Positions 25,088 to 25,734 of a DNA stretch of 64,000 nucleotides are shown here, piece after piece. The notes beneath the pieces were generated by a model. That model was not told the DNA's origin, did no database searches, and saw nothing but the letters and a program-made list of their open reading frames with translations. This DNA is from Streptomyces venezuelae ATCC 10712 (GTDB lineage: Bacteria > Actinomycetota > Actinomycetes > Streptomycetales > Streptomycetaceae), in the NCBI RefSeq assembly GCF_008639165.1, contig NZ_CP029197.1, positions 62,001 through 126,000 of the forward strand, written 5' to 3'. The translations under genes were made by a program, and so were the position numbers. Within the stretch, counting starts at the first letter, position 1, and each line of letters opens with the position of its first letter.

Positions 25088-25116
25088 TTGAGCGTCGCCG
25101 CGGGGTTTCCTAGGCT
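25088..25116 (+). promoter_or_regulatory. Promoter: TTGAGC-17 nt-TAGGCT
   Basis: The -35-like TTGAGC (25088-25093) and -10-like TAGGCT (25111-25116) are separated by 17 bp, a good housekeeping-sigma match. The predicted start near 25123 gives a leader whose extended SD begins almost at once. The promoter overlaps the end of the beta-lactamase gene. Confidence 0.65.
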
Positions 25117-25122
25117 GTGGTC

Positions 25123-25352
25123 ACACGCTGAAAGGAGGTGATCCGAGAACATGGTTTCTTTTCGGATTCGTGAGGTGACTGCGGGCTAACGGCCTGCCGT
25201 CGCACTCTGTGCACCTCGGCAGTTCGTCTGCCGAAAACCACGCAGTCACCCGACCCGTGGGCCGCCGGTAGATCCGGCCGGCTCCCGTCCGAACTCGAGC
25301 GGACGGGACCAGGCCCACGGGTCGTCTGCGTTTCCGGGCCCACCGCGCCCGG
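25123..25352 (+). promoter_or_regulatory. Structured leader RNA with uORF and alternative hairpins
   Basis: Perfect stems read directly from the sequence are: GGTGACTGCG 25174-25183 with 25241-25250; TCGGCAG 25216-25222 with 25228-25234; GACCCGTGGGCC 25252-25263 with 25312-25323, enclosing GCCGG 25264-25268/25274-25278 and TCCCGTCCG 25283-25291/25300-25308, so a three-way junction; and CCGGGC 25334-25339/25347-25352. CTGCCG at 25194-25199 competes with 25228-25233 for CGGCAG, giving mutually exclusive hairpins. The left arm of the first stem lies inside the uORF, so translation should decide the fold. This looks like an attenuator; target gene uncertain. Confidence 0.7.
25151..25189 (+). CDS. 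12-codon leader peptide (MVSFRIREVTAG) with extended SD
   Basis: ATG 25151 to TAA 25187-25189. Upstream, GAAAGGAGGTGATCC (25130-25144) is complementary to the 3' end of 16S rRNA over 15 nt, far more than a normal SD. The GGAGG-to-ATG gap is 12 nt. Codons 8-11 form one arm of a 10-bp stem with 25241-25250. The peptide is probably a ribosome-placement device rather than a functional product. Confidence 0.65.
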   Translation: MVSFRIREVTAG

Positions 25353-25477: not shown

Positions 25478-25526
25478 CCCGTTCAAGATCGACCCCCGTT
25501 CAAGATCGAGCCCCGTTCAAGATCGA
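25478..25526 (+). repeat. Three 17-bp direct repeats (GTTCAAGATCGA core)
   Basis: GTTCAAGATCGA starts at 25481, 25498 and 25515, a 17-bp period with CCC/CCCC joins. The repeats sit at the edge of the dehydratase remnant and may mark slippage or a deletion scar. Confidence 0.75.
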
Positions 25527-25529
25527 CCG

Positions 25530-25734
25530 GAGAACTTTCTCGCCGGTGCCGAAGCCGTGCCGGAACGCCGGATCGCCGACGCGATGGCGTATCTCTGGCA
25601 GTACGGCCGCGCTGTCACCGAGCCGTCCAGCGCCGTGGCGTTCGCCGGGCTTCTCCAGGCGACCGGACCGGCTGCCGGCCGGCCCGGTCGGCGCGGTGCT
25701 GCCCAGCGACACCATCGACCGGAAAGACACCTCC
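25530..25734 (+). pseudogene. C-terminal remnant of a threonine dehydratase-like PLP enzyme
   Basis: In frame with 25557 the DNA reads ...ADAMAYLWQYGRAVTEPSSA, then VAFAGLLQATG. This is the pattern of the C-terminal part of the threonine/serine dehydratase catalytic domain (a helix, then xVEPSGAVxxAALL). After a one-base shift the next frame gives PVGAVLPSDTID, matching the following conserved strand (VxVVLSGGN). The PLP-lysine region is absent. A gene has been reduced to its 3' end and frameshifted. The leader RNA may once have served this gene. Confidence 0.5.

What the first reader, a model, noticed from the sequence alone, without database searches (positions are those of the whole stretch)
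25088..25352. uORF-controlled structured leader with 15-nt complementarity to the 16S rRNA 3' end
Seen directly: a promoter (TTGAGC-17-TAGGCT), an SD GAAAGGAGGTGATCC that matches the anti-SD over 15 nt, a 12-codon ORF, and five perfect stems. One arm of the first stem lies in uORF codons 8-11. CTGCCG occurs twice and competes for one CGGCAG, giving exclusive hairpins; a 12-bp stem then closes a three-way junction. This is the logic of an attenuator or ribosome-stalling switch. No such element is known to me under this description. It precedes a broken dehydratase gene and a MurF paralogue and follows a beta-lactamase. It may sense translation-targeting or cell-wall stress.
Basis: partly seen in the sequence, partly recalled or inferred. 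Interest (0 to 1): 0.85.

Follow-up and report, generated by a model that had tools for sequence, protein, structure and literature searches.

The report
Translated pseudoknot RNA pairing with 16S
This is a known small RNA family (Ms_IGR-5) that most Actinobacteria sampled here carry; comparison of about 200 relatives shows a knotted RNA that matches the whole free tail of the ribosome's 16S rRNA and carries a tiny reading frame that is always kept although the peptide is not, so its job is probably to engage ribosomes rather than to control the gene next door.

Summary
The promoter, the 15-nt complement to the 16S 3' tail, the 12-codon ORF and the main stems are all there; the 15-mer occurs nowhere else in the genome except antisense to its six 16S genes. 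The element is not unknown: 25123-25330 is Rfam RF02471 (Ms_IGR-5, 80.6 bits), found in 196 of 199 Streptomyces genomes, RNA-seq-supported in S. lividans and ribosome-protected in two mycobacteria. It is not a leader or attenuator: the next gene downstream is on the opposite strand more often than not (104 vs 44), and co-directional ones are mostly unrelated. Comparative analysis gives a structure that Rfam lacks. The 5' end pairs with ORF codon 7 (P0), codons 8-11 pair downstream (P2), and codons 5-6 form a pseudoknot with the loop of the 3' hairpin; all three show compensatory changes. The full 16S pairing holds in 121 of 128 dereplicated homologues (the rest pair at 14). The ORF start and stop stay in frame in every homologue examined. 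In deep lineages the frame shifts across the invariant GAGGTG and the peptide changes completely. The likely role is a stand-alone RNA that loads ribosomes and whose translation, not its peptide, matters. What it does to the cell is inferred.

The parts
25088..25116 (+). sigma-70-type promoter TTGAGC-17-TAGGCT; predicted transcript start near 25123
   Evidence: Sequence; promoter-like boxes conserved in 120/155 homologues, 0/775 controls. Start site not measured.
25123..25330 (+). Ms_IGR-5 (RF02471) RNA
   Evidence: 80.6 bits, gathering score 45, model 1-184 complete; the only copy in the genome
25124..25127 (+). P0 5' strand (CACG), pairs with 25169-25172 (codon 7 and first base of codon 8)
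   Evidence: Top-ranked covariation among 19,701 column pairs; 96.6% of cells paired, 3 of 4 pairs with changes on both sides
25130..25144 (+). Shine-Dalgarno extended to 15 nt, complement of the whole single-stranded 16S rRNA tail
   Evidence: Exact match to own 16S; all 15 positions pair (Watson-Crick or G-U) in 121/128 dereplicated homologues, 14 in the other 7
25151..25189 (+). short ORF MVSFRIREVTAG*, start codon to stop codon
   Evidence: NTG at this place in 95% and an in-frame stop at the same place in 100% of 114 homologues; in frame in 35/35 deep loci
25163..25168 (+). pseudoknot 5' strand (CGGATT, codons 5-6), pairs with 25271-25276
   Evidence: 87.5% paired, 77 cells changed on both sides against 32.8 in shuffles; the window itself carries a compensated C-G to U-A change
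25169..25172 (+). P0 3' strand (CGTG)
25172..25177 (+). near-invariant GAGGTG, SD-like, 6 nt before the last sense codon
   Evidence: Present in all 261 unique elements of the main set; a few deep loci read GAGGTA or TAGGTG
25174..25183 (+). P2 5' strand, in codons 8-11
   Evidence: 97.8% paired, 5 of 9 pairs with compensatory changes
25184..25233 (+). P3 and variable hairpin region; stop codon at its base
   Evidence: 82.8% paired for the two basal pairs; otherwise variable
25241..25250 (+). P2 3' strand
25251..25263 (+). P4 5' strand, pairs with 25312-25324; terminator-like hairpin holding a three-way junction
   Evidence: 12 of 13 pairs with changes on both sides, 88-93% paired; fold z -7.2
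25264..25282 (+). P4a hairpin (25264-25268 with 25278-25282); its 9-nt loop presents GATCCG (25271-25276) to the pseudoknot
   Evidence: Covarying pairs 25264-25282 and 25268-25278 support the long-loop register
25312..25324 (+). P4 3' strand

Best explanation
Window 25123-25330 encodes a stand-alone, structured, translated small RNA: the local copy of the actinobacterial Ms_IGR-5 family. Shown by comparison: (a) complementarity to the entire free 3' tail of 16S rRNA is under selection, because variation is almost only of the G-U-compatible kind; (b) the RNA folds into P0, P2, P4 and a pseudoknot between ORF codons 5-6 and the P4a loop; (c) a 10-18 codon ORF runs through P0, P2 and the pseudoknot, with start and stop kept in frame even where the frame, and so the peptide, changed. 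Inferred: a 30S subunit loads on the 15-nt duplex while the pseudoknot, which begins about 13 nt after the start codon's first base, gates entry. Translation melts the pseudoknot, P0 and P2. At the stop codon the internal GAGGUG lies 6 nt from the P-site codon, the usual SD distance, so the terminating ribosome is held there. The RNA thus toggles between a free pseudoknotted fold and a ribosome-occupied, unfolded one. It acts as a ribosome-loaded or translation-gated RNA whose folding, lifetime or exposed sequence reports or uses ribosome availability, not as a peptide gene and not as a switch for the next gene.
For: 16S pairing kept at 15/15 in 121 of 128 homologues; unique in the genome outside 16S genes. 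P0+P2+P3+P4+pseudoknot: 92.2% of cells paired, 426 cells changed on both sides against 131 in shuffles, covariation 0.351 against 0.148 shuffled and at most 0.065 when slid; pseudoknot alone 77 vs 32.8 cells, covariation 0.248 vs 0.080. ORF: start 95%, stop 100% at fixed places, no other in-frame stop; 35/35 deep loci in frame, out-of-frame NTG in only 0/35 and 5/35; about ten of them with the stop 14 instead of 15 nt after GAGGTG and the start moved to match. Stand-alone: downstream gene opposite 104, same strand 44, largest related group 8. Ribosome footprints on the homologues in M. abscessus and M. smegmatis (PMC4974804); own transcript in S. lividans (PMC8079986), S. avermitilis (PMC8780764) and M. 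smegmatis (PMC10454040).
Against: No experiment here: transcript ends, ribosome occupancy and function in this strain are unmeasured. The loading, gating and holding steps are inferred from geometry. The two outer pseudoknot pairs form in only 61-76% of homologues, and its inner four hardly vary. Column shuffles do not keep phylogeny; the slid control does, but favours a structure read from the same alignment. Loci were found with models that contain start and stop columns, so some ascertainment is possible (the out-of-frame control speaks against it). An Hfq-pulldown origin of the name (own recollection) would leave a base-pairing role open.
Confidence: 0.5

Rival explanations
1. A trans-acting base-pairing sRNA in which the ORF is a secondary, dual-function feature; the P3 region, the J3/2 AAUCC or loops pair with mRNAs.
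For: Filed by Rfam as an sRNA; stand-alone transcript in several species; dual-function sRNAs are a known kind.
Against: The conserved parts are the 16S match, the ORF frame and the paired helices; the loops free for mRNA pairing are the variable ones. mRNA targets were not tested.
Confidence: 0.2
2. A gene for a conserved micropeptide of 12-15 residues.
For: ORF, start and stop conserved; ribosome footprints on homologues.
Against: 143 different peptides in 261 elements; in deep lineages the ORF is read in another frame across the same RNA motif, giving ..SGGGSS* instead of ..REVAAG*; the constant E-V is invariant at synonymous positions too, as expected of an RNA motif.
Confidence: 0.1
3. 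A leader: ribosome-mediated attenuator or stalling switch for the downstream gene.
For: ORF codons lie in stems; terminator-like P4 hairpin; in Streptomyces CTGCG (25326-25330) could pair with the P2 3' strand (25241-25245) when a ribosome blocks P2.
Against: Downstream gene on the other strand in 104 of 148 loci; co-directional ones fall into unrelated families; sRNA transcript with its own end in S. avermitilis; deep lineages carry a further terminator-like hairpin after P4 (by eye).
Confidence: 0.07
4. A pure 16S-tail decoy or 30S-sequestering RNA; the ORF is only a way to clear it.
For: The full 16S tail is covered in nearly all homologues; near-cognate starts in some lineages suggest slow initiation.
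Against: ORF length and stop position are kept more strictly than a simple decoy needs; abundance unknown.
Confidence: 0.13

Closest known systems
Rfam RF02471 Ms_IGR-5 (actinobacterial sRNA)
   Same: Full-length match, 80.6 bits; same gene family.
   Different: Rfam's 5' helix (SD with codons 9-11) has no compensatory change at all; Rfam lacks P0, the P2 pairing and the pseudoknot, does not mark an ORF, and its model finds 70 of 396 phylum genomes where the 5'-domain model built here finds 180.
E. coli rpsO (S15) pseudoknot entrapment of 30S (own knowledge)
   Same: A pseudoknot close to the start codon of an mRNA that binds 30S through its SD.
   Different: No ribosomal protein gene follows; the ORF is 10-18 codons; protein binding untested.
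Ribosome-mediated attenuators and arrest-peptide leaders (trp, erm, whiB7 type; own knowledge)
   Same: Short ORF whose codons lie in stems, terminator-like hairpin.
   Different: No conserved regulated gene, no conserved peptide or codon run.
Dual-function sRNAs (SgrS, RNAIII type; own knowledge)
   Same: Small regulatory-type RNA with a translated short ORF.
   Different: Here the peptide is not conserved and the ORF runs through the core fold.
Ms1 / 6S-type and 6C RNAs of Actinobacteria
   Same: Widespread actinobacterial small RNAs.
   Different: Other Rfam families; no match of this window to them.

Membership tests
Rfam RF02471 Ms_IGR-5 | covariance-model score above the gathering cut-off | tested here: met
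   80.6 bits against 45, complete model
Rfam RF02471 Ms_IGR-5 | stand-alone transcription as an sRNA | not testable with these tools
   Reported for homologues (PMC8079986, PMC8780764, PMC10454040); promoter conserved; no data for this strain
Rfam RF02471 Ms_IGR-5 | Rfam consensus structure, 5' helix | tested here: not met
   0 cells changed on both sides, shuffles equal; this speaks against the model's helix, not against membership by sequence
Rfam RF02471 Ms_IGR-5 | Rfam consensus structure, large 3' hairpin | tested here: met
   12 of 13 P4 pairs with compensatory changes
Ribosome-mediated attenuator / leader | conserved co-directional regulated gene downstream | tested here: not met
   44 co-directional against 104 opposite; unrelated families
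Ribosome-mediated attenuator / leader | conserved regulatory codons or arrest peptide | tested here: not met
   Peptide changes frame in deep lineages
Ribosome-mediated attenuator / leader | mutually exclusive terminator and antiterminator | tested here: inconclusive
   Only a pairing seen in most Streptomyces loci (CGCAG with CTGCG) that is not kept in other lineages; CTGCCG/CGGCAG not conserved
Micropeptide gene | start and stop conserved in frame | tested here: met
Micropeptide gene | amino-acid sequence conserved beyond RNA constraints | tested here: not met
   143 peptides; frame change
30S entrapment / ribosome-holding RNA | binds 30S and delays initiation or termination | not testable with these tools
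   Geometry only; needs toeprinting

The most novel reading that the evidence does not exclude
Many lineages of the phylum Actinomycetota carry an ancient pseudoknotted RNA that pairs with the complete 16S tail and parks ribosomes by loading them on one SD and holding them at a stop codon by a second one, so that ribosome supply controls its fold: an RNA whose act of translation, not its peptide and not a neighbouring gene, is the function.
Probability: 0.3. Interest if true: 0.87.

Novelty: new variant of a known kind. Interest (0 to 1): 0.63.

Why it matters
Ms_IGR-5 has been a name in lists of sRNAs for over a decade, and none of the papers found in the library assigns it a function. The comparison here gives it a supported secondary structure with a pseudoknot, shows that pairing with the whole 16S tail is under selection, and shows a reading frame that is conserved while its peptide is not. 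That makes a clear experimental question out of an anonymous RNA, in model species (S. coelicolor, M. smegmatis) where it can be deleted and rebuilt, and it suggests a kind of ribosome-coupled RNA that searches for peptides or for regulated genes would miss.

Tried and rejected
Two scripts that located the pseudoknot loop by pattern or by folding short windows gave noisy anchors and were replaced by whole alignments. The start-codon hairpin P1 (25140-25145 with 25163-25168) forms in the window but shows almost no covariation beyond shuffles, so it is at most a local or alternative state. The Rfam 5' helix was tested and has no support. The first ORF count missed the usual start because 21 nt was left out of the offsets, corrected. 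The original Ms_IGR-5 and S. coelicolor sRNA papers are not held. No paper held contains the peptide strings searched. One stringent pattern found no copy in viral contigs. Cell-wall sensing was rejected because the neighbours are not conserved.

Full report
What is there. The finding's letters are correct. A TTGAGC-17-TAGGCT promoter (25088-25116) leads to a transcript start near 25123. GAAAGGAGGTGATCC (25130-25144) is the exact complement of this genome's own 16S tail. The ORF ATG 25151 to TAA 25187-25189 encodes MVSFRIREVTAG. The 15-mer occurs seven times in the 8.2-Mb genome: once here and six times antisense to 16S genes. Nothing else in the window exceeds 12 of 15 matches on either strand. 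The 265-nt region folds at z = -4.9 and the 3' hairpin at z = -7.2.

It is a known family. Positions 25123-25330 match Rfam RF02471, Ms_IGR-5, over the complete model at 80.6 bits against a cut-off of 45; it is the only copy in the genome. The Rfam model finds it in 196 of 199 Streptomyces genomes, 58 of 61 in the family, 250 of 395 in the class and 70 of 396 in the phylum. Published data on homologues: an RNA-seq-validated sRNA in S. lividans (PMC8079986), a stand-alone sRNA transcription unit in S. avermitilis (PMC8780764), significant ribosomal reads in M. abscessus and M. smegmatis (PMC4974804), and an overlap with a detected M. smegmatis sRNA (PMC10454040). From its position it is probably the S. 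coelicolor sRNA scr4389; that equation rests on my own knowledge of gene order and was not verified.

It is not a leader. In mycobacteria it lies between an aminotransferase-class-IV gene (PabC-like, own naming) and, commonly, a convergent THAP4/nitrobindin-type gene; in many Streptomyces the next gene is a convergent pyridoxamine phosphate oxidase. In the window the neighbours are a beta-lactamase-family gene and a Mur ligase. In the Rfam-derived set the next gene downstream is on the opposite strand in 104 loci and on the same strand in 44; the 44 fall into many unrelated groups, the largest of 8. The upstream promoter box is present in 120 of 155 homologues and in none of 775 control windows.

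The 16S match is selected. In 128 dereplicated homologues all 15 positions can pair with the 16S tail (Watson-Crick or G-U) in 121 and 14 positions in the other seven, although only 10 have the perfect Watson-Crick match. The tolerated changes are almost only A to G and C to T, which keep pairing. In the deep loci fetched later, the first SD pairs at 15 of 15 in nearly all.

The structure. A G-test with average-product correction over 19,701 column pairs of a sequence-only MAFFT alignment of 128 homologues put an unexpected helix at the top: the transcript's 5' end, CACG (25124-25127), with CGTG (25169-25172), codon 7 and the first base of codon 8. Other top pairs give P2 (25174-25183 with 25241-25250), P4 (25251-25263 with 25312-25324), P4a in the register with a 9-nt loop, and a pseudoknot between codons 5-6 (25163-25168) and the P4a loop (25271-25276). 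On an independent tool alignment of 106 homologues the 34 pairs of P0, P2, P3, P4 and the pseudoknot are 92.2% paired, with 426 cells changed on both sides (shuffles 131) and a covariation score of 0.351 (shuffles 0.148, slid versions at most 0.065). The pseudoknot alone gives 87.5%, 77 against 32.8 cells, and 0.248 against 0.080. The window's own copy carries one of its rare compensated pairs (C-G to U-A at 25167/25272). The hairpin around the start codon (P1) shows almost no covariation beyond shuffles, and the 5' helix of the Rfam consensus shows none.

The ORF. In 261 unique elements the third codon after GAG-GTG is always followed by a stop (TAG 222, TGA 29, TAA 10). Counting only the Rfam-derived loci, whose selection did not require it, the stops are TAG 120, TGA 28, TAA 7 and never TGG. 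In 114 dereplicated actinomycete homologues an ATG, GTG or TTG stands 21 nt before GAGGTG in 95%; the only other offsets above 6% are -17 (30%) and -10 (21%), both out of frame with the stop; the stop is at +15 in 100%. Where there is no NTG, a near-cognate codon (CTG, ATT, ATC, ACG) is found there.

A test on loci not used before. A model of the 5' domain alone (R1) finds 180 of 396 phylum genomes and 112 of 236 genera, far more than Rfam's model, about 140 of them at E below 1e-9; the weak group near 1e-4 was not examined. I fetched further stretches; 35 could be scored (one of them, L349, re-fetches a genome used earlier, and a few others come from genomes searched before, so not all are strictly new). 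All 35 have an ORF of 10-18 codons running in frame to the conserved stop (31 NTG, 4 near-cognate starts); NTG out of frame with the stop at the same spacing occurred in 0 and 5 of 35. In about ten of them the stop lies 14 rather than 15 nt after GAGGTG and the start has moved to match, so the same RNA motif is read as Gly-Gly instead of Glu-Val and the peptide is, for example, MHSTSGGGSS* instead of MVSFRIREVTAG*. The frame is conserved; the peptide is not.

How it most likely works. Shown: a stand-alone gene family, selected pairing with the whole 16S tail, a pseudoknotted fold that includes the ORF, and conservation of the reading frame without conservation of the peptide. Inferred: the 30S subunit is captured by the long duplex; the pseudoknot, about 13 nt after the start, gates loading; translation melts the pseudoknot, P0 and P2; and a terminating ribosome is held because GAGGTG lies 6 nt upstream of the P-site codon, the usual SD distance. 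The output, whether a change of RNA lifetime, exposure of a partner site or sequestration of ribosomes, is open. I put 0.5 on this broad reading, with base-pairing sRNA (0.2), simple 16S decoy (0.13), micropeptide (0.1) and leader (0.07) as rivals.

Limits. No expression or binding data exist for this strain. Shuffled controls ignore phylogeny, and slid controls favour a structure read from the same alignment; a phylogeny-aware test is still needed. The models that found the loci contain start and stop columns. The original Ms_IGR-5 and S. coelicolor sRNA papers are not in the held library, so an earlier description of the ORF cannot be excluded; no held paper contains the peptide strings.

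Noticed in passing
window 25241-25245 with 25326-25330: In most Streptomyces loci TCTGCGT follows the P4 hairpin and could pair with the P2 3' strand, lengthening the terminator-like hairpin when P2 is blocked; not kept in other lineages.
   Followed up: partly
window 25542-25718: Fragment of a pyridoxal-phosphate enzyme (PALP, serine/threonine-dehydratase type), E = 7e-5, below the Pfam cut-off: a gene remnant between the RNA and the Mur ligase gene.
   Followed up: partly
window 25480-25530: Three near-identical tandem copies of about 17 nt (CCCGTTCAAGATCGA..) between the RNA and the gene remnant.
   Followed up: no
L328-L332, L343, L344 (deep lineages): Very short versions (10-11 codons) in which the distance between SD and GAGGTG is reduced and the ORF runs in another frame.
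   Followed up: partly
G654, G243, G254, G281, G415: Some genomes have two matches to the family or to the 5'-domain model; paralogues or assembly duplicates.
   Followed up: no
family f18 and similar, E about 1e-4: A group of genomes with weak, uniform matches to the 5'-domain model; remote members or matches antisense to 16S genes.
   Followed up: no
L264-L276, about 60 nt after the P4 position: In deep lineages a further terminator-like hairpin, in some followed by a T-run (for example GGGCGCC..GGCGCCCTTCGTCATTTTT), follows the P4 position, so the transcript there probably ends after the pseudoknotted part.
   Followed up: no
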